Positions 9,217 to 48,693 of a stretch of DNA of 53,467 nucleotides are shown piece after piece (the first letter of the stretch is position 1; each line of letters starts with the position of its first letter). The stretch spans positions 1 through 53,467 of the IMG/VR virus record IMGVR_UViG_3300010354_003850, one strand, 5' to 3'. Origin of the DNA: a virus. The translations under genes and the position numbers were made by a program. A model generated the notes under the pieces. The model had not been told where the DNA came from. It was given only the letters and a program-made list of their open reading frames with translations, and did not search any database.

Positions 9217-9224
9217 TATAAATA
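9217..9224 (+). promoter_or_regulatory. T4-type late promoter (TATAAATA, full consensus), leaderless
   Basis: An exact TATAAATA. The predicted start near 9230 is two bases from ATG 9232, so the message is effectively leaderless. Confidence 0.85.
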
Positions 9225-9231
9225 CCGTACC

Positions 9232-9597: not shown

Positions 9598-9609
9598 TTG
9601 GAGATCATC

Positions 9610-10510: not shown

Positions 10511-10824
10511 GTACTGATGAGTGATGCGCCAAGAGGAACCATGCTAGGCTCTTAAAAGCGTATGGAAATCAAGACTGCCAACAAGCAGACTCGCCGTTAC
10601 GCTCTCGCAGCGTGACCTCAAACCACCCGACTCCGCTAGGGTGGGGAGAGCAAACAGCGGATGGGCTTTCGGGAACGGGAACGCCGAAGGAAGCCGAGAA
10701 CAAAGAGTCCCAATCTGATCCGCTAAGTCGCCTTCAGCGGCGGGTCTGAACAAGTGAAGGATATTGGCGTAGTAAGCACCACGGAATGCATGACAACACG
10801 GGGGTTCGAATCCCCCCGACTCCA
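10484..10824 (+). ncRNA. ssrA: Phage-encoded one-piece tmRNA (ssrA), tag ANKQTRRYALAA
   Basis: The 5' end GGGGTCG (10484-10490) pairs with CGACTCC (10817-10823), closing a tRNA-like acceptor. The 3' end has a perfect T-arm (GGGGG-TTCGAAT-CCCCC, 10800-10816) and discriminator A; CCA is not encoded. After the 5' end comes GGAATCGATT, a variant of the conserved tmRNA GGATTCGAC. At 10577-10615, 94 nt from the 5' end (about 90 in E. coli), a frame reads ANKQTRRYALAA then TGA, a proteolysis tag ending in the classic YALAA. Total length 341 nt is normal. The pseudoknot region follows the tag. It would rescue stalled ribosomes and tag products for ClpXP-type decay. Confidence 0.9.
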
Positions 10825-10830
10825 CTAACT

Positions 10831-10902
10831 GCGGATGTAACTCAACGGTAGAGTGCCACCCTTCCAAGATGGCTGTTGTGGGTTCGAATCCCATCATCCG
10901 CT
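10831..10902 (+). tRNA. tRNA-Gly (TCC)
   Basis: A 72-nt cloverleaf: acceptor GCGGATG/CATCCGC, anticodon loop CTTCCAA (TCC), T-arm GTGGG/CCCAT, discriminator T as usual for Gly. The anticodon stem CCACC/GATGG has one C-A mismatch. It begins 6 bases after the tmRNA. Confidence 0.9.
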
Positions 10903-11158
10903 TCTTTGATAGATCAACGAAACGCTAACCAAGGAGATACAATGAACGCCGTCCATAGTTAACTATTATTGATTGAGTCGGTGTGTAGGTCCGTTGGTGT
11001 ACCCTAGGTACTATACCCTTCCGAAAGGATGTAAAACGGCAGCACCGACACTCGGACCGATGGCGGGAATGTCCATCGTTTTGGCAAGTAGTGGAATGTT
11101 CTTGCCATGTAATGGCAAATACATCTCCGGTCTGACCCACCTCACGGGTCATTTCTAT
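10903..11158 (+). ncRNA. Structured RNA region with possible pseudoknot and a six-codon mini-ORF
   Basis: This is a gap between tRNA genes with no credible protein gene. AAGGAGA and ATG at 10942 open a six-codon frame (MNAVHS, stop 10960-10962). Downstream, GTCGGTG (10977-10983) pairs with CACCGAC (11043-11049) and GGTCCG (10988-10993) with CGGACC (11053-11058). The two helices cross, forming an H-type pseudoknot. Further hairpins are CGATGG/CCATCG (~11058-11077), GGCAAG/CTTGCC (~11083-11105) and GACCC/GGGTC (~11134-11150). The density of helices suggests a stable RNA. The mini-ORF could be a leader peptide or the remnant of a deleted gene. Confidence 0.45.
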
Positions 11159-11230
11159 TGGCTCGTAGCACAACGGTAGTGCATCCCGCTGTTAACGGGA
11201 CGGTTGAAGGTTCGAATCCTTCCGAGCCAG
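11159..11230 (+). tRNA. tRNA-Asn (GTT)
   Basis: A 72-nt cloverleaf: acceptor TGGCTCG/CGAGCCA, anticodon stem TCCCG/CGGGA with loop CTGTTAA (GTT), T-arm GAAGG/CCTTC, discriminator G. Confidence 0.95.
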
Positions 11231-11231
11231 T

Positions 11232-11302
11232 TCCCTTGTGGTGTAACGGTAGCACAGGAGATTTTGGTTCTTCTAGTTTTGGTTCGAATCCAAGCGAGGG
11301 AA
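11232..11302 (+). tRNA. tRNA-Gln (TTG)
   Basis: A 71-nt cloverleaf: acceptor TCCCTTG/CGAGGGA with one G-T pair, anticodon stem GGAGA/TCTTC with loop TTTTGGT (TTG), four-base variable region, T-arm TTTGG/CCAAG, discriminator A. Confidence 0.88.
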
Positions 11303-11307
11303 CCTAT

Positions 11308-11379
11308 GCCGTCTTAGCACAGCGGTAGTGCAGTTGATTTGTAATCAACAGGTCATCGGTTCGAATCCGATAGGCGGCT
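11308..11379 (+). tRNA. tRNA-Thr (TGT)
   Basis: A 72-nt cloverleaf: acceptor GCCGTCT/AGGCGGC, anticodon stem GTTGA/TCAAC with loop TTTGTAA (TGT), T-arm ATCGG/CCGAT, discriminator T. Confidence 0.93.
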
Positions 11380-11395
11380 TTGGTCTGATAATCAC

Positions 11396-11477
11396 GGGAG
11401 TGTACTCAAGCGGACAACGAGGGCAGACTGTAAATCTGCTGCCATTGGCTACGGGGGTTCGAATCCCTCCGCTCCCA
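11396..11477 (+). tRNA. tRNA-Tyr (GTA)
   Basis: An 82-nt class II tRNA: acceptor GGGAGTG/CGCTCCC, anticodon stem GCAGA/TCTGC with loop CTGTAAA (GTA), 13-base variable arm, T-arm GGGGG/CCCTC, discriminator A. Confidence 0.93.
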
Positions 11478-11480
11478 TTC

Positions 11481-11509
11481 TTGACACGGGGGAAGTTCTG
11501 TGCTATGAT
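11481..11509 (+). promoter_or_regulatory. Early sigma-70 promoter, leaderless
   Basis: TTGACA (11481-11486), 17-base spacer, TATGAT (11504-11509), a near-perfect promoter 4 bases after tRNA-Tyr. Start expected at ~11516, one base before ATG 11517. Confidence 0.85.
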
Positions 11510-11516
11510 CGTCAAT

Positions 11517-11897
11517 ATGAACAATTACACCTTCACCTTCGGAAGTCGTTACGGCGAGAAGAGAACTGCAACCTTGATTGAGGAAGAGAAGGGACAGGCT
11601 ACCTTCCATGTGCATGGCGTATCTCGCTATGTCCGTGGTGGAGAAGACATGTTCGACTTTGAGGGTGGTCCGTTCTATGGGGTCGGTGGCGACTTCCATG
11701 GGCGAGGAGACATTCTCTCCGTTGTCCCTGCACCTAGAGTGGTTCCCGCAGATCAGAATGATTCTGTTGGGGGATGCCTTGTTGTGGTCAAGTTGAACAA
11801 GGATGCCAAGAAGGAAATTCAGAAGTGGAACGAAAGCCGTCCCAAGATCGAAGCACTCAAGCAGGAGATCGGTGAATGGCTAGACAATGGGGAATAA
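11517..11897 (+). CDS. Early hypothetical protein
   Basis: A protein of 126 residues. The promoter placement fixes ATG 11517 as the start and implies a leaderless message. The N-terminal ~60 residues look like beta strands (YTFTFGSRYGEKRTATLIE, ATFHVHGVSRYV), with a Gly/Phe-rich middle (FDFEGGPFYGVGGDFHGRGD) and a helical C-terminus (KKEIQKWNESRPKIEALKQE). Unknown family. Its end overlaps the next frame by 22 bases. Confidence 0.6.
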   Translation: MNNYTFTFGSRYGEKRTATLIEEEKGQATFHVHGVSRYVRGGEDMFDFEGGPFYGVGGDFHGRGDILSVVPAPRVVPADQNDSVGGCLVVVKLNKDAKKEIQKWNESRPKIEALKQEIGEWLDNGE

Positions 11898-12262
11898 AAC
11901 TGTACAGCGGCAATGAAGACCGTGGTTGGGTTGTTTCGCACGGGCGTGTTGTCGCAGTCTACGAAGACAAGGACTTTGCAGAAAAGGAAGCAGAATGGCT
12001 GACGAACTTTCAGAAGAAGTGCGGAACGAAGAATCAGTACAAGGCAACCAAGTGGACTCCCGAGGAGGGAATGGAAACCCAAGTACAAGTGCCGCAATCG
12101 ACAAGATCGCAAAACTCGCTGACGCTCTCCGAGCATCGCAAGAAAAGCGTAGAGAAGAAATCGAAGCCCGTTACCCAAGGGTCTTCGGCGGTGGCACCAA
12201 CTCTCCCGACAAATCTATCGGAACTGTTTATTGGGAATTTGGATACGGATGGGACTCCCTGA
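11876..12262 (+). CDS. Hypothetical protein in a long overlap with the next gene
   Basis: A 128-residue frame from ATG 11876. The first ~65 residues look like a real protein (WGIKLYSGNEDRGWVVSHGRVVAVYEDKDFAEKEAEWLTNF). After about 12065 the translation becomes Ser/Thr/Gln-rich and reads like a shadow of the better-supported frame starting at 11995. Either the genes truly overlap by 268 bases, or a frameshift has lengthened this one. No distinct ribosome site; coupling to the preceding gene is likely. Confidence 0.45.
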   Translation: MARQWGIKLYSGNEDRGWVVSHGRVVAVYEDKDFAEKEAEWLTNFQKKCGTKNQYKATKWTPEEGMETQVQVPQSTRSQNSLTLSEHRKKSVEKKSKPVTQGSSAVAPTLPTNLSELFIGNLDTDGTP

Positions 12263-12594
12263 TCGAAAACCTTGCGGCGGCTATCGACCGTGAGATTGAA
12301 CACGATCCTTCCCTCCTCATCGAAGACCATGAGAACGGCAAGTTTGCCTTCAAGGTTGAGCAGATGAAGGAGAAGTTCGGCGCACTCCGTTTCTACTACA
12401 GCGGAGGAAACGATAGGATTCATGGTCTCGTTGACATGACAGAGAACCTGTCTGCAAGCGTTTGCGAGGTTTGTGGTAGTCTTGGGACTCTGTGCAAGAA
12501 GGACAACGGTTCTTGGATGAAGACCCTGTGCGAGGACTGTGCGGAAAAGATGGGATTCACCCCCATTTTGTTTGATGATGATGCAGAGGCATGA
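11995..12594 (+). CDS. Conserved phage protein with C-terminal four-cysteine zinc-ribbon-like motif
   Basis: A protein of 199 residues from ATG 11995; GTG 12052 is a later alternative. The body (RYPRVFGG, FGYGWDSLIENLAAAIDREIEHDP, VEQMKEKFGALRFYYSGG) followed by CEVCGS...C...WMKTLCEDCAEKMG matches a common phage and bacterial hypothetical family: an F.....GW..LI..L segment, QVKEKFG.LRFY, then two CxxC-type pairs. The cysteines probably bind zinc. The N-terminal ~30 residues overlap the upstream frame and are low in complexity. Function unknown. Confidence 0.65.
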   Translation: MADELSEEVRNEESVQGNQVDSRGGNGNPSTSAAIDKIAKLADALRASQEKRREEIEARYPRVFGGGTNSPDKSIGTVYWEFGYGWDSLIENLAAAIDREIEHDPSLLIEDHENGKFAFKVEQMKEKFGALRFYYSGGNDRIHGLVDMTENLSASVCEVCGSLGTLCKKDNGSWMKTLCEDCAEKMGFTPILFDDDAEA

Positions 12595-12598
12595 TGTC

Positions 12599-12605
12599 AT
12601 AAATA
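12599..12605 (+). promoter_or_regulatory. T4-type late promoter (ATAAATA), leaderless
   Basis: ATAAATA ends at 12605. The predicted start ~12611 is one base before ATG 12612 and lies after the in-frame GTG 12606, so the ATG is the start. Confidence 0.7.
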
Positions 12606-12611
12606 GTGGAT

Positions 12612-13016
12612 ATGGCTAACCAATTCGACAACCCACTAGTAAATGACATCATCAAGGTGATCTCCGAGGAAACAAATCCGCCCATGACTCTTGTAGTCAA
12701 CGGCACGAACGCAAAGACTCTGGATTTCACCGAGGACGCAAACGATCCTTCCGTCCACCTGTTTGGTCTTGGGGTTAGGAAACTCTCCACCCTGAAGAAA
12801 GAGATTCAGCAGGACTTGATGCGGTTCACTCAATTGGTCGGCAACAGGGATGCAAAGGATCTCATGGTTTACCTGACCGATTTTCAAGGCAAGTATTCGA
12901 GCAATATGTACTTCGCCTATAAGATTCAAGCCTTGATGGAAATCGAAGAGTTCATGAAGCGTCCCGAAGTCAAGCGCAAGGTGACCTTGATCAAGAAGAA
13001 GAAGCAAGGTGGCTAA
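12612..13016 (+). CDS. Late protein of unknown function
   Basis: A protein of 134 residues, leaderless from its late promoter. The N-terminus MANQFDNPLVNDIIKVISEE has an amphipathic helix with an I-x-E site, weakly like the packaged set. The body has beta-type segments (MTLVVNGTNAKTLDF) followed by helices and a basic tail (KVTLIKKKKQGG). The fold is unrecognised; a structural or packaged protein is plausible from the promoter. Confidence 0.55.
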   Translation: MANQFDNPLVNDIIKVISEETNPPMTLVVNGTNAKTLDFTEDANDPSVHLFGLGVRKLSTLKKEIQQDLMRFTQLVGNRDAKDLMVYLTDFQGKYSSNMYFAYKIQALMEIEEFMKRPEVKRKVTLIKKKKQGG

Positions 13017-13416
13017 AGCATTGAGAAACAATGCCCGTGTGACAAGTTGTCGCACACGCACATGCGCCCCCACGGGCGAGATGAAGGCATTGATTGCAGC
13101 CAAGTTGGGCAAGGGCGGCAAGTCTGATGACCGTGGCTATTCCGAAATTCTTGCTTTGGTTGACAAGATGGTTGAATCGAATGTTTGGGGAGGCAGCATC
13201 AAGGGATACCTTTTCAAGGGATCGGTTGATACTGGTACAAGGAGTGCGGTCACGGGATTCGCCAGAAGCAACGGCTGGCAACAGACAAATGGAAAGCGAA
13301 TCGTAAAGTATGGAATCATCATTCGTGGTGGCAAGCAGAACCGCCGTCACCTTCTCATCTTCGGTTACTATCGTGGAACCCCAAACCGAGCATACTGCTC
13401 ATTAACTGTAATATGA
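13009..13416 (+). CDS. Hypothetical protein carrying a GC-rich repeat near its start
   Basis: A 135-residue frame from GTG 13009, overlapping the previous gene by 8 bases. Residues ~15-24 are encoded by a GC-rich CGCAC/CGGGCG repeat of the kind found in three other genes here. If translation instead began at ATG 13081 (MKALIAAKLGKGGK), the repeat would be in the leader. The rest (GSIKGYLFKGSVDTGTRSAV, KRIVKYGIIIRGGKQNRRHLL, CSLTVI) looks like a small alpha/beta domain of unknown type. Confidence 0.5.
   Translation: MAKALRNNARVTSCRTRTCAPTGEMKALIAAKLGKGGKSDDRGYSEILALVDKMVESNVWGGSIKGYLFKGSVDTGTRSAVTGFARSNGWQQTNGKRIVKYGIIIRGGKQNRRHLLIFGYYRGTPNRAYCSLTVI
13051..13080 (+). repeat. GC-rich CGCAC/ACGGGCG repeat, copy A
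   Basis: A GC-rich run of CGCAC and CACGGGCG units in DNA otherwise near 47% GC. Related runs lie at 27911-27967, 41388-41434 and 50120-50170. This copy is short and degenerate. Confidence 0.5.
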
Positions 13417-13434
13417 AAAAGATCATTCAATTGT

Positions 13435-13463
13435 TTGACATGAAAGGTCGTAGGGTGTATGAT
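13435..13463 (+). promoter_or_regulatory. Early sigma-70 promoter
   Basis: TTGACA (13435-13440), 17-base spacer, TATGAT (13458-13463). It lies inside the frame that opens at 13413 and points to the ATG at 13515. Confidence 0.75.
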
Positions 13464-13514
13464 TTCGCCCACGATTGGGAAAACGACTTACCATCTCTTG
13501 AAAGGAGAATCGTT

Positions 13515-13820
13515 ATGCGTCAGAGAACAGGTGTGATTGAGAATATTCGTACTGGTACTTTTTTCATGGCTGTGGGTGTCGTTGCTTCGGCGGCGGCTTG
13601 CTACTTCGCATGGACCGGCAACCTTGCCGTGGCGATTGGTCTTGTTGCCGTTGGTGGACTGCTACATGCCGCAGGGAGCGCAGTTTCCTTTGCGAACGAG
13701 CGTCTTGAGTCGGTAACTACCGAGTACCGTGAGCGGGAGAACACCCGTGAAATCTGGACAAACATCAGCCGCATCGAAGATCGGCTTGAAGAGTTGCAGA
13801 CAAAGCGCAGCACCAAGTAA
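13515..13820 (+). CDS. Small membrane protein with two transmembrane helices and a coiled-coil tail
   Basis: A protein of 101 residues. ATG 13515 is chosen over the in-frame ATG 13413 because a strong promoter (13435-13463) lies between them and AGGAG is seven bases before 13515. Two hydrophobic segments (GTFFMAVGVVASAAACYFAW and LAVAIGLVAVGGLLHAAGSA) are joined by a short turn, and a charged helical tail follows (RENTREIWTNISRIEDRLEELQ) that would face the cytoplasm. An early inner-membrane protein is inferred; role unknown. Confidence 0.65.
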   Translation: MRQRTGVIENIRTGTFFMAVGVVASAAACYFAWTGNLAVAIGLVAVGGLLHAAGSAVSFANERLESVTTEYRERENTREIWTNISRIEDRLEELQTKRSTK

Positions 13821-13841
13821 GATTCATTGTAATCTTATTTG

Positions 13842-13875
13842 GGGAGGGGGGTTCCGCTACTCCCCCCTCCCTTTT
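13842..13875 (+). terminator. Strong rho-independent terminator
   Basis: A perfect 10-bp stem GGGAGGGGGG/CCCCCCTCCC (13842-13851/13862-13871) with a ten-base loop is followed by TTTT. Confidence 0.9.
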
Positions 13876-13879
13876 GCTA

Positions 13880-13953
13880 GGCCCCATCGTCTAGTCGGTC
13901 TAGGACACCTCCCTTTCACGGAGATAACAGGGGTTCGAATCCCCTTGGGGTCA
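13880..13953 (+). tRNA. tRNA-Glu (TTC)
   Basis: A 74-nt cloverleaf: acceptor GGCCCCA/TGGGGTC, anticodon loop CTTTCAC (TTC), T-arm AGGGG-TTCGAAT-CCCCT, discriminator A. The anticodon stem CCTCC/GGAGA has a mismatched outer pair. Confidence 0.93.
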
Positions 13954-15170: not shown

Positions 15171-15203
15171 ACCTTTGGGCAGATGCCTCCGTTTGGAGGG
15201 GTT

Positions 15204-15902
15204 ATGAGGAGACTGTTGGTATTCACAGTCGCTCTGGTTCTTGCGGCAGGAACCATCCTCAAGGGTAAACAACCCGAAGTAGTCAGCACCCAAACAAACA
15301 TAGCAGAACAAGTCATGAATCTCGCTGTTGAGATTCATGCTATCAAAGACGGAAACATAGGAGTCGGATCAGGCGTTCTTTACAGAGCGAACGGAGAACT
15401 ATATGTTCTCACCGCAGCGCATGTAGTGGAAGAAGGTGCGATGTGTCTCATCGACCAGAAATCTATTGACGATGATTCGGTATGCAAAATGTGGCAAGGC
15501 GAGGTGGTTGCTCGGGACAATGATTCCGATTGGGCAATCATCCGGCTCGTAGGGGAATCACAAGGCATCAGAGTTGGAACAACTTTCATGCCCTCACCCC
15601 TACGGGTCGGAAACGAAGTTTATGTCGTTGGTTCACCTTTGGGAGAAGAAAACACTATTACCGAGGGCATCGTTGCAAATCATAAAAGGTCTGTGTCGTG
15701 GAACAACGACAGACACACAGTCATAACATGCAACGGTGCCCCCGGTTCTAGTGGAGGAGGAGTGTACGATGCGAAAACAGGAAAATGCATTGGTATCGTT
15801 GTTCGACTCAATTGTGGGGCAAACCTTTTGTATGTTGTTTCAATCGAAACGATACTCAAGGATTTGGAAGAAATGGGTAAGTCATCTTTGCTTCCCTCTT
15901 GA
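15204..15902 (+). CDS. Exported trypsin-like serine protease
   Basis: A protein of 232 residues. ATG 15204 is chosen over ATG 15183 because GGAGG precedes it and it starts a textbook signal peptide (MRRLLVFTVALVLAAG). The chymotrypsin-fold triad is visible: His73 in LTAAHVV, Asp109 in DSDWAII, Ser183 in GAPGSSGGG. Length and layout fit the HtrA/Deg protease domain without a PDZ domain. After export it would work in the periplasm, possibly on envelope or competing-phage proteins, or in lysis. Its final codons contain the -35 box of the clamp-gene promoter. Confidence 0.8.
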   Translation: MRRLLVFTVALVLAAGTILKGKQPEVVSTQTNIAEQVMNLAVEIHAIKDGNIGVGSGVLYRANGELYVLTAAHVVEEGAMCLIDQKSIDDDSVCKMWQGEVVARDNDSDWAIIRLVGESQGIRVGTTFMPSPLRVGNEVYVVGSPLGEENTITEGIVANHKRSVSWNNDRHTVITCNGAPGSSGGGVYDAKTGKCIGIVVRLNCGANLLYVVSIETILKDLEEMGKSSLLPS

Positions 15903-22474: not shown

Positions 22475-22755
22475 AGAAGATAACACCTGTCGGCAAATGG
22501 ATTGCGGTAAAGACTGAAGGACTTGGTGCTGAAAAGAAAACCGAGTCGGGAATCATCTACAAAGAGAAGATTACCAATCCAAACATTTGGAGCGTGGTTG
22601 TCGCCATCGGCAACAAGGTGAGCGAAGACATTCGAATCGGTGATCGGGTTCTTTGGGACTTGACAAAGAACACAACCCGTGTAGGATATCAGTCTTGCGA
22701 TCTGATTCATCAAGACTGGATTCATGCAACGGAGAGAACTGATGCCAACGCATAA
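22471..22755 (+). CDS. GroES-like co-chaperonin
   Basis: A protein of 94 residues, GroES size. It begins ITPVGKWIAVKTE, then KTESGIIYKE, and has NIWSVVVAIGNKVSEDIRIGDRVLWDL, matching the GroES barrel (P...R.LV, ...GGI.LP, G.V...G.G......V..GD.V). The residues between (TESGIIY) would form the mobile loop that contacts GroEL. T4 gp31 has the same job in folding the capsid protein; this version is closer to host GroES in size and pattern. Confidence 0.75.
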   Translation: MKKITPVGKWIAVKTEGLGAEKKTESGIIYKEKITNPNIWSVVVAIGNKVSEDIRIGDRVLWDLTKNTTRVGYQSCDLIHQDWIHATERTDANA

Positions 22756-23695
22756 GATTATTTTGGGTGACTGCATCAAGGGAATGAAGACGCTGCCTGA
22801 AGGCTGCATCAACACCTGTGTCACTTCGCCGCCGTATTTCGGCTTGCGTAACTATGGTGGTGGCGAGGACGAGATCGGACAGGAAGCAACCGTGGACGGA
22901 TTCGTTGAGAAGATGGTGGAGGTCTTCCGTGGCGTTCATCGCATTCTTCGTGATGATGGAACCCTGTGGCTGAACCTTGGCGACTCCTACATGTCTGCCA
23001 ACTGCGTCCCGCCCCCACAGACGGTTGCAAACGGAAACCACCGTGACATGCCGACCGACTTCGTTCCATCGAATCGACAGCCACAGAAGGGATTGAAGCA
23101 GAAGGACTTGATCGGCATTCCGTGGCGAGTGGCATTTGCCCTGCAAGCGGACGGTTGGTATCTCCGTCAGGATATCATTTGGCACAAGCCAAACCCGATG
23201 CCCGAGAGCGTGGAAGATCGTTGCACCAAGGCACACGAATACATCTTCCTTCTGTCCAAGAAGCCACGGTACTATTATGACTTTGAGGCAATCAAGGAAC
23301 CCGCCAAGGATTGGGGTACACGGGATCGAACCAACGGCAAGTACACCGCAGAGGACACCGAGTTCGGCTTGGAGCCGCATGGCGGTCTGAAGAACGGCAA
23401 CTTTGCCGAGCGTGGAAAGAACAAGCGTTCCGTTTGGAGCGTGACCACCAAGCCGTATCGTGGGGCGCACTTTGCCACCTTCCCGAAGGACTTGATTCTT
23501 CCGTGCGTCTTGGCAGGATGCCCCAAGGACGGCACGGTGTTCGATCCCTTCACGGGAAGCGGAACCACGGCGGTAGTTGCCCTGAACAACGGACGAAACT
23601 TCATTGGCACGGAACTCAATCCCGAGTACATTAAGATTGCCGAAGGGCGAATCGGGGAAGAGGTGAAACCGACCCTTGAAGGATTGTTTTCATGA
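22742..23695 (+). CDS. DNA methyltransferase (TSPPY type), copy 1
   Basis: A protein of 317 residues; GGAGA precedes ATG 22742. Motif IV TSPPYFGLRNYG, the substrate segment DGTLWLNLGDSY, and motif I DPFTGSGTT are in the beta-class order of N4-cytosine/N6-adenine methyltransferases; TSPPY with GLRxY favours this broad group without deciding the base. FAT FPKDLILPCVLAGCP is also typical. It starts inside the GroES gene and ends in an ATGA overlap with a close paralogue. The likely role is protection of phage DNA from restriction. Confidence 0.88.
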   Translation: MPTHKIILGDCIKGMKTLPEGCINTCVTSPPYFGLRNYGGGEDEIGQEATVDGFVEKMVEVFRGVHRILRDDGTLWLNLGDSYMSANCVPPPQTVANGNHRDMPTDFVPSNRQPQKGLKQKDLIGIPWRVAFALQADGWYLRQDIIWHKPNPMPESVEDRCTKAHEYIFLLSKKPRYYYDFEAIKEPAKDWGTRDRTNGKYTAEDTEFGLEPHGGLKNGNFAERGKNKRSVWSVTTKPYRGAHFATFPKDLILPCVLAGCPKDGTVFDPFTGSGTTAVVALNNGRNFIGTELNPEYIKIAEGRIGEEVKPTLEGLFS

Positions 23696-24675
23696 CGGTG
23701 AGTCATAGAATACTTCACGGCGATTGCATTCAAATGATGAAGACGCTGCCCGATGGTTGCGTCAATACTTGCATTACATCGCCGCCGTATTTTGGTCTCC
23801 GTGATTACAAAGGGGGTACGGCTGAAATTGGATGCGAGTCTTCCCCTGAAGAGTATGTCCGAAAGATAGTCGATGTCTTCCGTGAGGTTTACCGCATTCT
23901 GCGTGACGATGGAACGCTGTGGCTGAACCTTGGCGACTCTTATGCAAGCAATGGCTGTTACATTAATTCATGGTTGCAGAAAGAACACAATAAAGGCAAG
24001 AAGCATTTGCACACAAACAACCATGAAAGGTATGAAGATCGCAAGGCATTTCGTGGTGGAGAATACGGGATCAAATCCAAGGACTTGATGGGGATTCCAT
24101 GGCGAGTTGCACTTGCATTGCAGCAGGATGGTTGGTATCTGCGGCAGGACATCATTTGGCACAAGCCAAACCCCATGCCTGAAAGCGTTGAGGATCGTTG
24201 CACCAAGGCTCATGAGTACATCTTTCTACTGACGAAGAACCCAAAGTATTACTATGACTTTGATGCTGTTAAGGAGCCTGTTGCTCAAAGCACGGTAAGT
24301 CGATTGGCTCAAAAAAACTTGCCGAATCAAATCGGAAGCACCCGAGTGCCCGGAAAGACGAATGGCAACATGAAGGCTGTGGGCAATTCGGAAAAAAGAA
24401 ACCGCAGATCAGTTTGGACGGTGAATGTAAAAGGATACAAAGGAGCGCACTTCGCAACCTTTCCAAAGGAATTGATTGAGCCGTGTGTCTTGGCAGGATG
24501 TCCCGTTGGCGGCGTTGTGTTTGATCCATTTACGGGCAGCGGGACTACTGCCGTGGTTGCCCTGAACAATCAAAGAAACTTTGTGGGAACCGAGTTGAAT
24601 TCCGATTATGTCTGCCTTGCAGAGAGTAGAATCTCCGAAGAAGCACCGCAAACCCTCAAGGACATCCTTGCATGA
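23692..24675 (+). CDS. DNA methyltransferase (TSPPY type), copy 2
   Basis: A protein of 327 residues, clearly duplicated from copy 1: it shares the start (ILHGDCIQMMKTLPDG), TSPPYFGLRDY, WRVALALQQDGWYLRQDI and DPFTGSGTT. The differences cluster between residues ~80-115 (ASNGCYINSWLQKEHNKGKK) and ~195-235, where target recognition usually sits. This suggests the two enzymes methylate different sequences. Coupled by ATGA overlaps to copy 1 and to DNA polymerase. Confidence 0.88.
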   Translation: MTVSHRILHGDCIQMMKTLPDGCVNTCITSPPYFGLRDYKGGTAEIGCESSPEEYVRKIVDVFREVYRILRDDGTLWLNLGDSYASNGCYINSWLQKEHNKGKKHLHTNNHERYEDRKAFRGGEYGIKSKDLMGIPWRVALALQQDGWYLRQDIIWHKPNPMPESVEDRCTKAHEYIFLLTKNPKYYYDFDAVKEPVAQSTVSRLAQKNLPNQIGSTRVPGKTNGNMKAVGNSEKRNRRSVWTVNVKGYKGAHFATFPKELIEPCVLAGCPVGGVVFDPFTGSGTTAVVALNNQRNFVGTELNSDYVCLAESRISEEAPQTLKDILA

Positions 24676-27212: not shown

Positions 27213-27337
27213 GAATGCTTGAATCATTGCTCCATGTAGGAGTATTCCTTGTAATTGTTTACATCTTCATCTGTGCTTCAGTCATGGTGCTGAACCCTAA
27301 ATACCGTCAATGGCGAAGAGATTCGAATCATTCGTAA
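27209..27337 (+). CDS. Small single-pass membrane protein
   Basis: A 42-residue frame starting in the ATGA overlap with the polymerase stop. A single hydrophobic stretch (HVGVFLVIVYIFICASVMVL, about residues 9-28) is followed by a basic tail (KYRQWRRDSNHS). The late promoter and the first 28 bases of the next gene lie inside it. The overlap and clear membrane segment favour a real gene. Confidence 0.45.
   Translation: MRMLESLLHVGVFLVIVYIFICASVMVLNPKYRQWRRDSNHS
27297..27303 (+). promoter_or_regulatory. T4-type late promoter (CTAAATA), leaderless
   Basis: CTAAATA ends at 27303. Predicted start ~27309, one base before ATG 27310. Confidence 0.7.
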
Positions 27338-28080
27338 AAGAACCGATTAAGTATCCGCATGTTCATCTGTGCTTTGATGATCACTCGGTTTCGAATTGGT
27401 ACTCTTGCCGCCAACTGCTGACGAAGTACGAAGCCAAGGCTGCATTCTATGTGGATTCATTTCATCTGTTGGAGGTCAGCGAGTTGCAGATGCTGAAGGA
27501 ACTTCGTGATGATGGTCACATTATTGGATGCCACAGCAAGAGTCATAAAGACGCAATGAACTATTCACGCAAGTTCAACATTGACAGATACATCGATGAC
27601 GAAGTTATTCCTGCCATGGAAGAAATGGCAGGAGCGGGATTCAAGCCAACTCACTTTGCGTTTCCATATTCTCGCTTTGACGAGACTCTTTACTCCGCTG
27701 TCAATCCCATGTTCTGTTATGTCCGTCCCGGCAACGAGAGCCATTTCTATGCGGGTGAGAGAATGTATTTCAATCCAAGCAGATTGGAAAAACAGGAAAC
27801 TCCTACAGAGACATTGATTCGAAACGGCGACATGGAGGCAGTCATGACAAAACTCCGTGAAGGCGCAGAGGCAAACCATGGAATCAGTATTGTTCTCCAC
27901 GATGTTCGTCCTGCGGGCGCACCCCCGCACACGGGCACACACGCACGGGCGCACATCACGCACGGGGAGTTGGAACAGATTCTTAATGCGCTGAAAGACA
28001 ATGGATACTCGTATGAAACCTTTGAGAAGGTGTGCAAATACGGGTCGGATCCTTTTGACAAGCCCGATGGCTTGGTGTAA
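27310..28080 (+). CDS. Polysaccharide deacetylase-like (NodB-type) late protein
   Basis: A protein of 256 residues, leaderless. The N-terminus MAKRFESFVKE fits the capsid-targeting pattern with V-x-E. The NodB fold is indicated by HLCFDDH (motif 1, ~20-25, DD), GHIIGCHSKSHKD (motif 2, H-S-x-x-H) and THFAFPYSRF (motif 3). A late HDVRP (ISIVLHDVRPAG) fits motif 5. Such metal-dependent enzymes remove acetyl groups from glycans. The GC-rich repeat falls right after HDVRP and inserts ~15 residues of Ala/Gly/Pro/His/Thr. It may be packaged or on the tail, acting on the host surface. Confidence 0.65.
   Translation: MAKRFESFVKEPIKYPHVHLCFDDHSVSNWYSCRQLLTKYEAKAAFYVDSFHLLEVSELQMLKELRDDGHIIGCHSKSHKDAMNYSRKFNIDRYIDDEVIPAMEEMAGAGFKPTHFAFPYSRFDETLYSAVNPMFCYVRPGNESHFYAGERMYFNPSRLEKQETPTETLIRNGDMEAVMTKLREGAEANHGISIVLHDVRPAGAPPHTGTHARAHITHGELEQILNALKDNGYSYETFEKVCKYGSDPFDKPDGLV
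27911..27967 (+). repeat. GC-rich GGGCGCAC-type repeat, copy B
   Basis: Runs of GCGGGCGCAC, CACACGGGCAC and CGCACGGGCGCAC inside the deacetylase gene, encoding a low-complexity PAGAPPHTGTHARAH insertion. The frame is kept. Confidence 0.7.
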
Positions 28081-41469: not shown

Positions 41470-41543
41470 AGGCGGGTGCCTGAAGTGGAAAAAGGTGGTG
41501 ACTTATAATCGCCCTCATGCGGGTTCGATCCCCGCCCCGCCTA
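41470..41543 (+). tRNA. tRNA-Ile (TAT)
   Basis: A 74-nt cloverleaf: acceptor AGGCGGG/CCCGCCT, anticodon stem GGTGA/TCGCC with loop CTTATAA (anticodon TAT), T-arm GCGGG-TTCGATC-CCCGC, discriminator A. It reads AUA directly, whereas most bacteria use a lysidine-modified CAU tRNA. It begins 8 bases after the helicase stop. Confidence 0.9.
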
Positions 41544-41554: not shown

Positions 41555-41561
41555 CTAAATA
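41555..41561 (+). promoter_or_regulatory. T4-type late promoter (CTAAATA)
   Basis: Predicted start ~41567, then AGGAAGG (41570-41576) and GTG 41583; placed 12 bases after tRNA-Ile. Confidence 0.7.
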
Positions 41562-41582: not shown

Positions 41583-42782
41583 GTGCTATCGTTTAAAGAT
41601 GCCATACCCTCCTTGACGGAGGAAACCGTCAGGAACAAGCACCTTGATCACATTGAGGATCTTATGATTCTTCAAGGTGAAAGAGGGCTAAAACTGTCAA
41701 TTGCATTTCTAAAGGACATAGCGCAAAGCCTCAAGACCGGCGAGACCTCCTTGGGAATTTCTACCAAGTGGGATGGAAAGCCTGCAATTGTGTGTGGAAT
41801 AAACCCCGACAACGGCAAGTTCTTCGTTGCAACAAAGGGAGCATTCAACAAGACTGTTGTTGCATTTCACACCGAAGCAGAAGTCAAAAAGGGCGTTCCG
41901 AATGCTGATCTGGCATCGAAGTTGATTCAATGCCTGAAGTATTTGCCAAAAATTGGAATCAAGGGAGTCTTGCAGGGAGACCTGATGTTCACCCCCGATT
42001 CCAAAAAGACGCAGACGATAGATGGTAAAGAGTACATCACCTTCATGCCGAATACCATCATGTACGCAATCCCTGTAGGAAGCGATATAGGGCGTTCTGT
42101 TGCGTCTGCGAAGGTGGGGATAGCCTTCCACACCGTCTACAGCGGAAAGACCATGGCGGCTCTCTCTGCCTCTTCATTCAACTTCAATTCATCCTCTCTG
42201 AAGAAGACTCCTGATGTCTGGTTCACCGATCCAAACATCTACGACATTACCCCCGCCCTTCTCAAAGGAAATGAATATCAATCTCTGATGAGCATGATTA
42301 AAGATTGTGAATCAAAAGCGAAGACTGTCGGTCCGTTCATCAAAACGCTGATGAGTAACAAGGATTTGGTCGAATACATTCTTCCATATGTGAATGCAAC
42401 AATCAACGGTGGCTTGGCGCAGTTCTCGTCAAAAGGACTTGCCTTGAGCATCGAAACCAAGTTGGACAAAGAGATCGATAAGTTGAAAACCGAGCGGGGT
42501 AAGCAGGGAAAGCAGGAAGTCAAGAAAAAGTTGCTTTCCTTCATCAGCGCATATGACAAGCAGTTCAACGAAATGTTTGGACTACATAATAGTATTGCCA
42601 AGGCAAAAGAAGTACTTCTTGGCAAGTTCTATGCCCTGTCACAGTTTGGACATTTCTTTGTGGACGATGAGGGCATTCGTCCGACAGACCCCGAGGGGGT
42701 TGTCATCGCTCGTTCGGGCAAAGTAACAAAATTGGTCAATCGTCTTCGTTTCAGCCGCCAAAATAGGAAGATCAATCAATGA
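41583..42782 (+). CDS. Late ligase-like covalent nucleotidyltransferase
   Basis: A protein of 399 residues from GTG 41583. The N-terminus MLSFKDAIPSLTEE includes L-x-E. The ligase superfamily motif I is TKWDGKPAIVCG (Lys62-W-D-G), a later strand LQGDLMF fits motif III/IIIa territory, and DPEGVVIARSGKVTKLV near residue 375 fits motifs IV-V (EGVV, K.K). This is the set of DNA/RNA ligases and capping enzymes that form a lysine-nucleotide intermediate. T4 has RNA ligases that reseal cleaved tRNAs. Whether the substrate is RNA or DNA is unknown; a late promoter and packaging-like leader are notable. Confidence 0.7.
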   Translation: MLSFKDAIPSLTEETVRNKHLDHIEDLMILQGERGLKLSIAFLKDIAQSLKTGETSLGISTKWDGKPAIVCGINPDNGKFFVATKGAFNKTVVAFHTEAEVKKGVPNADLASKLIQCLKYLPKIGIKGVLQGDLMFTPDSKKTQTIDGKEYITFMPNTIMYAIPVGSDIGRSVASAKVGIAFHTVYSGKTMAALSASSFNFNSSSLKKTPDVWFTDPNIYDITPALLKGNEYQSLMSMIKDCESKAKTVGPFIKTLMSNKDLVEYILPYVNATINGGLAQFSSKGLALSIETKLDKEIDKLKTERGKQGKQEVKKKLLSFISAYDKQFNEMFGLHNSIAKAKEVLLGKFYALSQFGHFFVDDEGIRPTDPEGVVIARSGKVTKLVNRLRFSRQNRKINQ

Positions 42783-45700
42783 TGGAGAGGTTTGCAACTC
42801 ATATCACCGAAGCAAAGAAGAAAGATACCGCAGTCTTTGCATTCGGAAGAATGAACCCGCCCACGATTGGTCACGGTGCTGTCGTTGACAAGGTAATGTC
42901 CGAGGCATCAAAGAGAAACGCAGATCACTACATCTTTGTCTCCAAGACGCAGGAGCCAAAAAAGAATCCCTTGGATCAAAAGACCAAGATTGCCTATCTC
43001 AAGAAGTTTTTCCCGAGAGGCAATTTTCCGATTGGCAAGTCAATCAATCCATTTGACACGGTTCTGTACCTGTGTGAACTTGGGTACAAGCACATTGTTG
43101 TCGTAACAGGAAGCGATCACCTTGCCGAGTACAACAAGATCAAGGAATACAAGGGCAAGGTTGCATCAAACGATCCGAAGAAGCGAAAGTATTCGTTTGA
43201 AACATTTGAGGTCGTAATTGCCGGTGAGGCGAGAGATGACGCAGCCACAGGCGTTGCCGGTATGTCCGCTTCAAAGATGCGGGCTGCTGCGTTCAACAAC
43301 GATTACAAGTCTTTCTCCGCAGGCGTTCCGGGTACGGACGATGCAACCAAAAAGAAGTTGTTCAAGGATGTGCGAAAGGGACTCAACCTCAAGGAAGAGT
43401 ATTTCCCCGAAGCCAAGGACGAGACAGAGAATGTCACCATTCTTGCAGTTACTTCTTCGGAAAAAGATTTGAGCGACACCATCGAAAAGATGGAGGAAAT
43501 CTGCAAGCGGCGCAAGATCAATTTCTATGCGGTGAAGACAAGCAAGGCACAGGTTGACATTTCGAATGTCGCATCCAACAAGATAACGATCAAGAACTAT
43601 GACGGAGAAGGCAAGGATGTGACGATTGTCCCCGGCGATACCGTTGCCGTGGTTCGTGGTGGCGTGATGAACAGCGACATCGGTGTTGCAATCATGACGA
43701 TCTTGCAGAACAATGGCGTGTTCATGATCAATGAGCGTGGGGGCATGGAACTATGTGCCAACAAGTTGGAGACAGCAATTGCTCTCAAGAAGCATGAATT
43801 GCCCCATCCACGAACTGCCTTTGTCGCAAACGAAGAGAACATTGAATCGGCAGTCAAGGAAATCGGCGGAAAGTTCCCCGTCATCGTGAAGACGCTCACG
43901 GGCGCAGAGGGAATCGGGGTTTCCAAGATCGAAAGCATGGAAAGCCTGAAGTCCGTCTTGCAGACCCTGTGGAAGTACGGCGCAGAGGTCATCATGCAGG
44001 AGTTCCTGCCGAACTTCAAGAACGATGTGCGAAGCATCTGTCTCAACGGCAAGATATTCGCATGTGCCAAGCGGGACAAGGCACCGAAGGATTTCAGAAC
44101 CAATATCGCCCGAGGTTCCAAGGGCGGGTCTTTCCAACTTTCTGACGAGGAAATAAAGTTGGTGGAGCGGGCAGCAAGGGTCAGCAAGTGCTACTATGTC
44201 GGCATCGACCATGTAATCAACGATGGCAAGCCTTACATTATTGAAATGAATGCGTCACCGGGCAGCGGCAACATCTATTACCGATACTACGAGGACGGCA
44301 AGGGCAAGGACAATGTAAAGGGTGAGGAGTTGGTTGAGGATTTTGTTGATTACATTCTGAACAAGGCACATTGGAAGTTGTTCTCGAATCTTGCGGTCCG
44401 TGAGGAGGTCGTTATCGATGGCGAGGAATACACCGCCAAGATTGACACCGGCAACAGCGGTTACAACATGATCCATGCCGAGGACATCAAGGATAACGGA
44501 GATCACACCGTCACCTTCAAGTTGCCCAACGGCAAGAAGGTCACCAAGAAGATCGTCAGTCGCATCACGGTTAAGAGTGGAATCGGACAAAAGAAGCGTT
44601 TGGTGGTACTCATGGATATTGAATTCCATGGCAAGAAGTACACAAACATCAAGTTCAGCCTTGGTGATCGCAGCCATATGTCAACGAAGGTTCTCATTGG
44701 TTTGCAGTTTTTGAGCAAGACAGGAATGGTGGTGGATCCTGCTGATGCAATCTATCCACAGCCCGATGTCAACTCCAAGCGCAAGGGCGATGAAGAAGAG
44801 GAGATGAACGAGGACATGGCAATCAGCCAAGCCAAGGAGGCGGCAGTTGACATCCTCAAGACACCTGTTATTGCATCAAAGATATTTGCCGTTGCCAACA
44901 AAAAGGGCAAGTTGGCTCCCGAAGAATACAAGAGGGAAGTCGAAACGGTCAAGATGGAAATCATCAATCAGGCATACAAGGCATTGGGTGCAGGAAATAC
45001 CCTCACTCGATTTACCCAAGAAAACAAAGTAGCCAAGATACTGACCAAATTGATGGACAAGTTCATCGTGAGTGGCGGAATCGACATCAGCACATGGAAC
45101 AAATTGATGATGGGTGCAATCAAGTTTGTTCACATTCTTGGCATGGGCGATGAGTTGGAGGGAACTCCGATTGCGGAAGCGGATGCGACCAAAGGCAAGG
45201 AATTCAAGACAAAGACGGGAAAGATCAAGCAGAGTCCAAAAGACAAGGGTACGGGTCTTCCAAAGAAGTATGTCTCTGGATTGAGCAAGCGTGATGCAGA
45301 ACTACGAAAGAAGCGTTTGGAGAAGAGGAAGAACATGAGAGATGATGATCCAAAGACATGGGAATTCGTCAACCCCAAGGAAAAGAACATCAAGACGAAG
45401 CCATCGAAGTACAGCACTCTTTACAAGAAGTTGGAAAAGAAGGGGCAACTCAAGGCTCTGAAGAACCAATACGAACACGATACGGTAATGGAGCGATTGT
45501 TGGTCATTGACGAATCCAACGGCTCTGTTGGTCAAAAGATGCGTAAGGCAATTGAGACCGAGGAAAGGTGCCGCAATCGTGGAATGAGTGAAGGTGCAAA
45601 AATATCTCGTTGGTACATTGAATACCTGAAGGAAATTCGAAACACAGAATTGTCTTCCGATGAAACTCCATCGGATATCAACGAAGATTTTGAGTTCTTC

Positions 45701-46381
45701 ATGGTTGAGGTCAGTCCACCAAGCGGTCCTGCACGGCGATTCTCCAAGAAAGAAAAGATCAAGCAGCAATTCAGAGATCGTTACGGCAAGCGATGGAAGG
45801 AAGTTTTCTATGCTACGGCATGGAAGATGCACAAGGGAGAGTCCGTTGAGCCGACCGAGGATTGGTTGACCGAATCAAAAAAGATCAATTCGGTCATGCA
45901 ATGGACTGCCTTGGGCAAGCGTGGTCCTCTTCTGATTGGAACAAAGGAAATCGTAAACACCTACAAGCGAGACACCCCGGGTGAGCGTGAGCGACTTGGC
46001 GAGGAAAAGACTCCCGAGGAGAAGGATGCGCTGTACAAGGAGTGGCAAAAACTCGTAAACATGTCGGGAAAGGAAATACAATCGTTCCTTGATTCCGATG
46101 AGGGCAAGGAAGCGGGACTCTCTCGCAAAGAGGCTGGCAAGGCAGGATCAAGTGGTGGCAAGATCACAAGTGGCAGAGATTCTGCCCGTGCAATTATTCG
46201 TATGCTTGACACCCCCAAGGACAAGTGGACACCAAACGATTGGAAATGGGCTGGCAAGCAAGTCAGTTTCATTAGTCGCATGAAGGGCGCAAAAGGTGGT
46301 CTCCGTGACGAAAAGGGCAGACCAACCCGCAAATTGCTTGCGCTCAAAGTATGGGGCTACAATCCGGAGAAGAAGTCATGA
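42779..46381 (+). CDS. 1200-residue late polyprotein: nucleotidyltransferase, ATP-grasp, pepsin-like protease and tail modules
   Basis: ATG 42779 or 42782; the latter gives MERFATHITE, a capsid-targeting-like leader. Domains in order: (1) residues ~17-190, a cytidylyltransferase/NMN-adenylyltransferase fold with FGRMNPPTIGHG (H-x-G-H-type) and SASKMR; (2) ~222-525, RimK-like ATP-grasp with GGKFPVIVKTLTGAEGIGV and YIIEMNASPGSG; (3) ~537-660, RimB-like aspartic protease (PF05618 style) with AKIDTGNSGYNMIHA, LGDRSHMSTKVLIGLQFL; (4) helical ~680-790; (5) a basic C-terminal region with WLTESKK and GRDSARAIIRMLD...WAGKQVSFISRMKG. The RimK/RimB pairing is known to glutamylate ribosomal protein S6. 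Proteolytic processing and packaging are inferred. Confidence 0.75.
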   Translation: MMERFATHITEAKKKDTAVFAFGRMNPPTIGHGAVVDKVMSEASKRNADHYIFVSKTQEPKKNPLDQKTKIAYLKKFFPRGNFPIGKSINPFDTVLYLCELGYKHIVVVTGSDHLAEYNKIKEYKGKVASNDPKKRKYSFETFEVVIAGEARDDAATGVAGMSASKMRAAAFNNDYKSFSAGVPGTDDATKKKLFKDVRKGLNLKEEYFPEAKDETENVTILAVTSSEKDLSDTIEKMEEICKRRKINFYAVKTSKAQVDISNVASNKITIKNYDGEGKDVTIVPGDTVAVVRGGVMNSDIGVAIMTILQNNGVFMINERGGMELCANKLETAIALKKHELPHPRTAFVANEENIESAVKEIGGKFPVIVKTLTGAEGIGVSKIESMESLKSVLQTLWKYGAEVIMQEFLPNFKNDVRSICLNGKIFACAKRDKAPKDFRTNIARGSKGGSFQLSDEEIKLVERAARVSKCYYVGIDHVINDGKPYIIEMNASPGSGNIYYRYYEDGKGKDNVKGEELVEDFVDYILNKAHWKLFSNLAVREEVVIDGEEYTAKIDTGNSGYNMIHAEDIKDNGDHTVTFKLPNGKKVTKKIVSRITVKSGIGQKKRLVVLMDIEFHGKKYTNIKFSLGDRSHMSTKVLIGLQFLSKTGMVVDPADAIYPQPDVNSKRKGDEEEEMNEDMAISQAKEAAVDILKTPVIASKIFAVANKKGKLAPEEYKREVETVKMEIINQAYKALGAGNTLTRFTQENKVAKILTKLMDKFIVSGGIDISTWNKLMMGAIKFVHILGMGDELEGTPIAEADATKGKEFKTKTGKIKQSPKDKGTGLPKKYVSGLSKRDAELRKKRLEKRKNMRDDDPKTWEFVNPKEKNIKTKPSKYSTLYKKLEKKGQLKALKNQYEHDTVMERLLVIDESNGSVGQKMRKAIETEERCRNRGMSEGAKISRWYIEYLKEIRNTELSSDETPSDINEDFEFFMVEVSPPSGPARRFSKKEKIKQQFRDRYGKRWKEVFYATAWKMHKGESVEPTEDWLTESKKINSVMQWTALGKRGPLLIGTKEIVNTYKRDTPGERERLGEEKTPEEKDALYKEWQKLVNMSGKEIQSFLDSDEGKEAGLSRKEAGKAGSSGGKITSGRDSARAIIRMLDTPKDKWTPNDWKWAGKQVSFISRMKGAKGGLRDEKGRPTRKLLALKVWGYNPEKKS

Positions 46382-46638
46382 AATCATTCAAGGGACTGCT
46401 GAACAGCATTCAAGAAGCAAGAATCGCTGCGCTTGAAAAGAAAGCAAAGAAGAGCGGCATCCCTTACGGCATTCTAAAGAAAGTGTACGACCGGGGCATG
46501 GCAGCATGGAAGGGTGGGCATAGACCCGGTGCCAGCAGCCATGCATGGGCGTTCGCAAGAGTCAATTCATTCATAGTTGGCGGCAAGACCCGAAAGACGG
46601 CGGATGCCGATCTTTGGAAGAAGGCAAAGGGCGGCTGA
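46378..46638 (+). CDS. DUF5824-like small protein with capsid-targeting-like leader
   Basis: A protein of 86 residues in ATGA overlap with the polyprotein. The leader MKSFKGLLNSIQE (I-x-E) is joined to KSGIPYGILKKVYDRGMAAWKGGHRPGASSHAWAFARVNSFI, the DUF5824 block found in many phage proteins (G...L..V..RG..AW..GHRPG....QW...RV.SF). Function unknown. Probably co-transcribed and co-packaged with the polyprotein. Confidence 0.75.
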   Translation: MKSFKGLLNSIQEARIAALEKKAKKSGIPYGILKKVYDRGMAAWKGGHRPGASSHAWAFARVNSFIVGGKTRKTADADLWKKAKGG

Positions 46639-48204: not shown

Positions 48205-48693
48205 ATGAAGTCTTACAAAGAACTTCGCAAGACAATTCGTGAGCAGCACGGGGCATCTGAACCTTTTAGTGCATTTACTTCCCGTGGGCGTGTCGGTCCT
48301 CAAGATGGCGACAATGGGTTGGATGCGGACATGAATTTGTCTTCCCTAACGCCGGGAGCAATTGCCCGCATCAACACCTATCTCGGTGCATTGTCGGCAA
48401 AGCCCTATATCGACCCAATGGCTGCACTCAAGCAAGCACAGGGTCGTTTGCAGATGATTGGACTCAACTTTGATCTGACCAAGGAATGCGCCATGAGATT
48501 GGCTACGCAGACAGAAGAGATTATTCCTCTTGTCCGCTTTGGTGGCGTGTTCGGTAGTGATGGTACTACATACAGTACATCTTATGATGACGGAATCACT
48601 CCGAAACTTGGTCACGGTCTTGCAATTCGTGTTGAAACTCACAGACTCCCAAATGGATTGACACAGATTCACGCACAGATTGTACCAAACTGA
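48205..48693 (+). CDS. Late protein with capsid-targeting-like leader
   Basis: A protein of 162 residues; GGAAGG precedes ATG 48205. The leader MKSYKELRKTIRE (I-x-E) matches the T4 pattern, followed by a polar linker (SAFTSRGRVGPQDGDNGLDAD) and a body with LTPGAIARINTYLGALSAKPYIDPMAALKQAQGRLQMIGLNF and VETHRLPNGLTQIHAQIVP. The body resembles cyanophage virion-associated proteins of unknown role. It follows the surface protein gene by 19 bases and shares its late transcript. Confidence 0.65.
   Translation: MKSYKELRKTIREQHGASEPFSAFTSRGRVGPQDGDNGLDADMNLSSLTPGAIARINTYLGALSAKPYIDPMAALKQAQGRLQMIGLNFDLTKECAMRLATQTEEIIPLVRFGGVFGSDGTTYSTSYDDGITPKLGHGLAIRVETHRLPNGLTQIHAQIVPN

What the first reader, a model, noticed from the sequence alone, without database searches (positions are those of the whole stretch)
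42779..46381. 1200-residue fusion of nucleotidyltransferase, RimK-like ATP-grasp and RimB-like protease
Three enzyme folds in one late protein with a capsid-targeting-like leader. RimK and RimB-type proteins act together on ribosomal protein S6 glutamylation in bacteria. A head-delivered version could modify ribosomes at the moment of infection, while the HxGH nucleotidyltransferase could act on NAD or lipid precursors. Several (L/I/V)-x-E sites could release separate enzymes.
Basis: partly seen in the sequence, partly recalled or inferred. Interest (0 to 1): 0.85.

Follow-up and report, generated by a model that had tools for sequence, protein, structure and literature searches.

The report
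Head-packaged phage polyprotein carrying RimK–RimB
A T4-like water phage appears to build one long protein, cut it up inside its own head, and inject the pieces into the host, including a paired enzyme that resembles the bacterial machinery for adding and trimming glutamates on the ribosome.

Summary
Window 42779-46381 (+) is one intact 1200-aa ORF, conserved in more than 50 viral contigs and under purifying selection. It holds an NMNAT-like nucleotidyltransferase, a complete RimK-family ATP-grasp ligase and a RimB/RloA-like retropepsin domain with intact catalytic motifs, plus about 520 C-terminal residues in further modules.

The best reading is a T4-like capsid cargo polyprotein. It has a T4-type capsid-targeting leader (MERFATHITE|A). 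At the module borders relatives keep hydrophobic-x-E sites, the cut rule of the T4 gp21 protease, although the surrounding sequence varies. Whole modules are lost, gained or swapped at these sites. Relatives encode gp21. Pelagibacter-type phages carry RimK–RimB as a separate gene; 76 of 76 examined have the T4 leader core. In published virion proteomics, a RimK–RimB protein (phage YerA41) and NMNAT-like proteins (cyanophages) were found in particles.

The substrate is untested: ribosomal protein S6 is one candidate, poly-Glu tracts in the phage's own scaffold and linker another. RimK with a C-terminal DUF785 in T4-like marine phages was reported in 2008, so the pair is not new; the head-targeted, cassette-built delivery is. 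No experiment was run here.

The parts
41555..41561 (+). CTAAATA, T4-like late-promoter-like motif 28 bases upstream of the operon
   Evidence: 10 CTAAATA on the + strand, 0 on the - strand of the window; several lie just upstream of gene starts
41583..42782 (+). DUF6267 gene (399 aa) with its own leader MLSFKDAIPSLTE|E; same operon, overlaps the polyprotein start by 4 bases
   Evidence: PF19782 9e-94; PHROG 455 holds this domain and the NMNAT domain in one protein
42779..46381 (+). whole cargo polyprotein, 1200 aa
42779..42811 (+). capsid-targeting-like leader MMERFATHITE, predicted cut after E11
   Evidence: leader kept as [LIVF]-x-E in 26 of 27 distinct relatives; T4 CTS core spacing F-x-x-H-I-x-E
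42812..43411 (+). NMNAT/cytidyltransferase-like module, residues 12-211, predicted product 1
   Evidence: PHROG 3041 1e-49; motifs GRMNPPTIGH and GMSASKMR
43403..43411 (+). predicted cut site FPE|A after E211
   Evidence: 25 of 25 distinct linkers carry [LIVF]-x-E|A with variable middle residue
43412..44812 (+). RimK–RimB module, residues 212-678, predicted product 2 (about 467 aa)
   Evidence: most conserved part of the protein; dN/dS about 0.04-0.09 where not saturated; AlphaFold mean pLDDT 77
43760..44272 (+). RimK-type ATP-grasp domain, residues 328-498
   Evidence: Pfam 6e-29; Foldseek TM (target) 0.81-0.83 to RimK, including RimK with RpsF, 5zk6
44384..44758 (+). RimB/RloA-like retropepsin domain, residues 536-660, D556-T-G
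   Evidence: PF05618 2e-9; profile match to 2pma, 9g58, 9g59; TM (target) 0.76 to 2pma and 0.72 to RloA2 9g59 in the first, lower-confidence model
44792..44812 (+). poly-Glu tail EEEE followed by predicted cut site MNE|D after E678
   Evidence: E4 or longer in 19 of 26 distinct linkers; site in all 33 distinct linkers but not distinguishable from shuffles because the linker is Glu-rich
44813..45178 (+). variable helical module, residues 679-800; absent or replaced in several relatives; ends at IAE|A
   Evidence: absent between sites in L020/L022/L034/L063; swapped in L019; extra cassettes in L008, L041, L055
45179..45709 (+). module with N-terminal half of DUF5824, residues 801-977, ends at MVE|V
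   Evidence: PF19141 weak; site conserved
45710..45874 (+). 'RYGKRWKEVFYATAWK' module, residues 978-1032, ends at WLTE|S
   Evidence: site kept in most but not all relatives
45875..46378 (+). C-terminal DUF3140/DUF6321 module, residues 1033-1200
   Evidence: PF11338 1.5e-8, PF19846 1.4e-5
46378..46638 (+). 86-aa gene with its own leader MKSFKGLLNSIQE|A carrying the C-terminal half of DUF5824, which in other phages lies inside the polyprotein
   Evidence: PF19141 2e-19 and PHROG 3041 positions 604-677; fused in Melnitz and HTVC008M

Best explanation
This is a capsid cargo polyprotein of a T4-like (Kyanoviridae-related) phage. It is probably made late, drawn into the prohead core by an N-terminal capsid-targeting leader, and cut by the phage's gp21-type prohead protease after hydrophobic-x-Glu sites. 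The cuts release an NMNAT-like enzyme, a joined RimK–RimB enzyme and several small modules. These are packaged with the DNA and injected. In the host the RimK domain would ligate glutamate(s) onto a protein or peptide using ATP, and the retropepsin-like RimB domain would trim or recycle that modification. Basis of each step. Supported by sequence and comparative evidence: domains, intact catalytic residues, leader, cut-site pattern, cassette swapping, gp21 in relatives. Supported by published proteomics of relatives only: presence in virions. Inferred: late expression, actual cleavage, injection and enzyme activity. Open: the substrate. Ribosomal protein S6 is the leading host candidate, at about 30%.
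For: Leader: the T4 CTS core [FY]xx[FYHR][ILV]xE occurs near the start of 4 window genes against 0.26 expected, and 10 genes of a 168-kb relative against 0.45; stand-alone RimK–RimB genes of Pelagibacter-type phages carry it in 76 of 76, with none in 32,012 internal residues (variants). T4 gp21 cuts at L/I-X-E, and 10 CTS residues suffice for packaging (PMC9026906). Cut sites: columns 11, 211, 678, 800 and 977 have Glu in at least 92% of sequences, always a hydrophobic residue two before, and a middle residue that varies widely at the four internal sites, mostly in variable linkers; NMNAT|RimK linker 25/25 against 6.6 in shuffles, maximum 13. Cassettes are lost, gained or swapped between such sites. 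gp21 homologues in two relatives. Cyanophage NMNAT proteins start MKSFFQFLSE|A, MKKFSAFLNE|A, MKRFLQFLSE|A, (V)KSFLEFITE|A, and NMNAT-like proteins were found in cyanophage virions (PMC9602691 and PMC10665884). YerA41's 'ribosomal protein modification protein' g112 is marked particle-associated by LC-MS/MS (PMC7354516); the YerA41 RimK–RimB gene beside the ribonucleotide reductase genes is taken to be g112. Enzymes; RimB stimulates RimK and cuts poly-Glu (PMC11957791).
Against: No proteomics was found for this phage or a relative with this exact architecture, and no cut product has been seen. The window itself, a 53-kb fragment, does not contain the gp21 gene; it was found in relatives. In this window the NMNAT|RimK site is FPE|A, with F rather than L/I at P3. 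The RimB|next site is not better than shuffled Glu-rich linkers. Detection in purified virions can reflect co-purification, as the cyanophage papers note. S6-specific and RimB equivalog cut-offs are far from met, and the host is unknown. Bacterial RimBK of D. psychrophila cut poly-Glu but did not glutamylate the P. fluorescens RpsF tested (PMC11957791).
Confidence: 0.7

Rival explanations
1. The RimK–RimB pair acts inside the prohead, not in the host. It extends and cuts poly-Glu tracts, namely its own C-terminal linker and a poly-Glu run in the head scaffolding protein, as part of core assembly or maturation.
For: RimB cuts internal poly-Glu (PMC11957791). Poly-Glu follows RimB in 19 of 26 distinct linkers, with mixed GAA/GAG codons. 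In the 168-kb relative G001 the only Glu runs of 5 or more in ORFs of 80 aa or longer are this linker and the scaffold protein. The G002 scaffold has one too, and 25 of 29 close scaffold relatives have E7-E11 at one position.
Against: Phage Mosig has RimK–RimB but no such run in its scaffold, and DSL-LC02 has an E7 run without RimK–RimB. Several polyproteins lack the poly-Glu linker (L038, L048, L080). Scaffold proteins are Glu-rich in general. RimK needs ATP, whose supply inside a prohead is uncertain.
Confidence: 0.15
2. An ordinary multidomain enzyme expressed in the infected cell and not specially packaged; the leader and sites are incidental.
For: Detection in virions can be co-purification; poly-functional fusions are common in large phages.
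Against: The leader is preserved with T4-CTS spacing in independent gene contexts and the border sites stay while surrounding sequence changes; neighbouring genes carry such leaders too.
Confidence: 0.1
3. The RimK-like domain makes a small molecule or modifies a non-ribosomal protein (for example a glutathione-, LysW- or F420-type ligation) and RimB trims that product. This concerns the substrate and does not exclude head delivery.
For: Family-level but not S6-specific profile scores; higher or comparable hits to MptN, LysX, CofF and glutathione synthetase models. The RimBK hybrid tested in PMC11957791 showed no RpsF glutamylation.
Against: Best solved-structure matches are S6-type RimK, and pairing with a RimB-like domain fits the known RimK/RimB partnership.
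Confidence: 0.3
4. The fusion is an assembly or frameshift artefact.
For: None found.
Against: Same reading frame in dozens of independent contigs with high synonymous divergence and dN/dS about 0.04-0.09 in RimK–RimB where it could be estimated.
Confidence: 0.01

Closest known systems
Phage RimK with C-terminal DUF785 in T4-like marine contigs (Monier, Claverie, Ogata 2008, PMC2530865)
   Same: RimK ATP-grasp followed by PF05618 in T4-like phages; same domain order; a ribosome-modification role was already suggested there
   Different: In the passages read here, no capsid leaders, polyprotein form or prohead-protease sites are mentioned
Stand-alone RimK–RimB of Pelagibacter phage Mosig and relatives, and of YerA41
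   Same: About 28% identical RimK–RimB pair with the same invariant residues; Mosig type has a T4 CTS core leader
   Different: Separate gene, no NMNAT, no poly-Glu tail
Bacterial RimBK hybrid (D. psychrophila) and RimABK (PMC11957791)
   Same: RimB-like retropepsin joined to a RimK-family ligase
   Different: Opposite domain order (RimB first); cellular; equivalog scores here far below cut-off
T4 internal proteins IPI-IPIII and Alt, with capsid targeting sequence and gp21
   Same: Leader with the same spacing, L/I-x-E cut rule, cargo variable between phages
   Different: T4 cargo is mostly one protein per gene; here several enzymes and modules are strung in one chain with internal cut sites
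Cyanophage virion NMNAT/cytidyltransferase (S-SCSM1, S-CREM2, others)
   Same: NMNAT-like domain, CTS leader in the four cyanophage homologues read here, DUF6267-like gene next to it in several, NMNAT-like proteins found in virions
   Different: No RimK–RimB module
Polyvalent proteins (Iyer et al. 2017, PMC5512222)
   Same: Multidomain injected proteins released by proteolysis
   Different: Predicted to be cut by the head protease at linker sites in a T4-like phage; not based on the domain set described there

Membership tests
RimK family of alpha-L-glutamate ligases (TIGR00768, PF08443) | Model score over cut-off and intact ATP-grasp catalytic residues | tested here: met
   144.3 bits vs 143.4; Pfam 101 vs 21; K371, D477, E489, N491 invariant
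S6--L-glutamate ligase RimK (NF007764 equivalog) | Equivalog cut-off; modifies S6 C-terminus | tested here: not met
   65.7 bits vs 331; activity not testable here
RimB/RloA-like retropepsins (PF05618) | Family score over cut-off, DTG catalytic motif, retropepsin-like fold | tested here: met
   37.7 bits vs 27; D556-T-G invariant; TM 0.76 to 2pma
RimB or RloA3 equivalog (NF052261, NF052264) | Equivalog cut-off | tested here: not met
   29.3 vs 200 and 35.1 vs 210
NMN adenylyltransferase | Curated cut-off of an NMNAT model | tested here: not met
   16.8 vs 112 (TIGR00482), weak matches only, though that NMNAT model is the commonest hit, in 14 of 15 homologues; motifs T-x-G-H and S-x-S-K-M-R present
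T4-type capsid-targeted internal protein | N-terminal CTS ending in hydrophobic-x-E, conserved | tested here: met
T4-type capsid-targeted internal protein | gp21-type protease in the same phage | tested here: inconclusive
   Present in two relatives (G001, G002); window is a fragment without it
T4-type capsid-targeted internal protein | Found processed in virions and injected | not testable with these tools
   Only relatives' proteomics: YerA41 g112; NMNAT-like proteins in cyanophage virions

The most novel reading that the evidence does not exclude
T4-like aquatic phages deliver, in the head, a joined glutamate ligase and poly-Glu protease that rewrites a host translation protein (S6 or similar) at the moment of infection, cut from a cassette polyprotein whose cargo modules are exchanged between phages at head-protease sites.
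Probability: 0.25. Interest if true: 0.85.

Novelty: new variant of a known kind. Interest (0 to 1): 0.62.

Why it matters
It would show that T4-like phages string many head cargo enzymes on one chain and swap them as cassettes bounded by protease sites, so the sites give a sequence rule for predicting injected proteins in uncultured phages. It would also give the RimK–RimB genes, of which more than 200 were found in viral contigs by one partial scan, a place and time of action, making the 2008 idea that phages modify host ribosomes directly testable.

Tried and rejected
Artefactual fusion: rejected. Poly-Glu after RimB as a universal self-cutting site: weakened, because several polyproteins lack it. 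Link between scaffold poly-Glu and RimK–RimB presence: imperfect in both directions. First structure model from near-identical sequences had low confidence (pLDDT 58), so its RimK part was not used; a more diverse alignment gave 77. Sequence search of the NMNAT domain against solved structures gave nothing. Scans with the YerA41 and L082 proteins found no new relatives. A scan of cellular genomes found only four distant relatives, so no bacterial donor was identified. Host was not determined.

Full report
What is there. The ORF 42779-46381 (+) is intact, 1200 aa. From the N-terminus it has a short leader; an NMNAT/cytidyltransferase-like domain (PHROG 3041, 1e-49); a RimK pre-ATP-grasp and ATP-grasp region (Pfam 6e-29, TIGR00768 over cut-off); a RimB/RloA-like retropepsin domain (PF05618 2e-9); a Glu-rich linker; a variable helical module; a module with the first half of DUF5824; a small 'RYGKRWKEVFYATAWK' module; and DUF3140/DUF6321. 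It lies in a short operon behind a CTAAATA motif at 41555 (10 copies on the coding strand, none on the other), after a DUF6267 gene and before an 86-aa gene. Both neighbours have similar leaders.

It is real and conserved. Twenty viral loci encode the same protein, and a scan with the RimK–RimB part returned 60 loci, many of them new and not exhaustive. RimK–RimB is the most conserved part, with dN/dS about 0.04-0.09 where synonymous change was not saturated (dS is above 1, so these are rough). The ATP-grasp and retropepsin catalytic residues are invariant down to 27-30% identity. An AlphaFold model from 32 diverse sequences (mean pLDDT 77, pTM 0.65) matches RimK structures with target TM-scores 0.81-0.83, including RimK bound to RpsF.

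It looks like a head-cut polyprotein. T4 gp21 cuts after L/I-X-E, and ten leader residues target proteins to the head (PMC9026906). Here, conserved Glu columns with a hydrophobic residue two before and a freely varying middle residue sit at the module borders: after residues 11, 211, 678, 800 and 977, with a further site after 1032 in most relatives. At the leader 26 of 27 and at the NMNAT|RimK border 25 of 25 distinct linkers have the motif, against shuffled means of 9.2 and 6.6. At the RimB border all 33 do, but shuffles give 26.4, so that border is not significant by this test. Between these sites relatives lose the helical module (L020, L022, L034, L063), replace it by a 'KWVIYSKDGKKKLG' module (L019), or add modules (L008, L041, L055). 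Some modules that are inside the chain in one phage are separate genes with their own leader in another. PHROG 455 joins DUF6267 and the NMNAT domain in a single protein family.

Independent evidence for packaging. Pelagibacter-type phages encode RimK–RimB as a separate gene. All 76 examined start with a leader such as FKDYITE or FKNYLEE, the same spacing as the T4 leader, with no such motif in 32,012 internal residues. Those 76 are related sequences, so they are not 76 independent events, but the middle residue of the cut site varies among them. A distant third form (L082) starts MGIKQYLTE|G. The YerA41 homologue is annotated as a structural protein, and the paper marks a 'ribosomal protein modification protein' as particle-associated by LC-MS/MS (PMC7354516). 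NMNAT-like proteins have been found repeatedly in cyanophage virions (PMC9602691, PMC10665884), and the four cyanophage NMNAT proteins read here carry a T4-type leader. Two relatives encode a gp21-family protease.

What it probably does. RimK adds glutamates to S6, and RimB is a retropepsin that removes them, cuts internal poly-Glu and stimulates RimK (PMC11957791). The phage pair has both folds with intact active sites, so a ligate-and-trim cycle is the natural inference. The target is open. S6 is the best-known one, but S6-ligase and RimB equivalog cut-offs are far from met, and the host is unknown. An in-head role is possible. In the 168-kb relative the only two long poly-Glu runs are this linker and the scaffold protein, and 25 of 29 close scaffold relatives have such a run (my notebook entry says 26 of 31, which was a miscount). 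But Mosig breaks the link one way and DSL-LC02 the other.

Novelty. RimK with a C-terminal DUF785 in T4-like marine phages was described in 2008 (PMC2530865). NMNAT in virions, capsid targeting and multidomain injected proteins are also known. New here, as far as the held literature shows, are the head-targeting leader on RimK–RimB, its placement inside a polyprotein with conserved head-protease sites, and cassette exchange at those sites. The literature library is incomplete, so priority claims should be checked.

Limits. All conclusions about cleavage, packaging and injection in this phage are inferred from sequence and from relatives. The motif definitions for leaders and cut sites were chosen after looking at the sequences, which makes the counts somewhat optimistic; the T4 rule itself comes from the literature.

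Noticed in passing
window 8024-8557 (+): A 5'-3' deoxyribonucleotidase-like protein (PHROG 2643, 2e-25) starts MTMKSFMHHITE|A, so a nucleotide-degrading enzyme may also be head cargo.
   Followed up: partly
window 27310-28080 (+): A polysaccharide deacetylase-like protein (PF01522) starts MAKRFESFVKE; a 257-aa gene in relative G001 with a similar start reads MAQAFRSFLSE|E.
   Followed up: partly
window 4206-5117, 387-2711 and 48205-48693 (+): Proteins of unknown function with leader-like starts MKAFGKYLTE|R, MINDFQRRILAE|A and MKSYKELRKTIRE|Q; further candidate head cargo.
   Followed up: partly
L089 15179-16273 (-) and L027: Head scaffolding proteins of relatives carry a pure poly-Glu run (E7-E11 in 25 of 29 close relatives) at one position; a few relatives have lost it.
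   Followed up: partly
window 15183-15902 (+): A trypsin-like protease (PF13365, 6e-23; PHROG 9683 protease) in a phage genome.
   Followed up: no
window 22724-24675 (+): Two adjacent N6/N4 DNA methyltransferases (PF01555, both about 1e-52).
   Followed up: no
L084 5001-5288: A short stand-alone RimB-like ORF (152 codons stop to stop, DSGN motif) without a RimK in the same ORF.
   Followed up: no
window 7857-13953 and 41470-41543 (+): Ten tRNA genes; host not determined from them.
   Followed up: no
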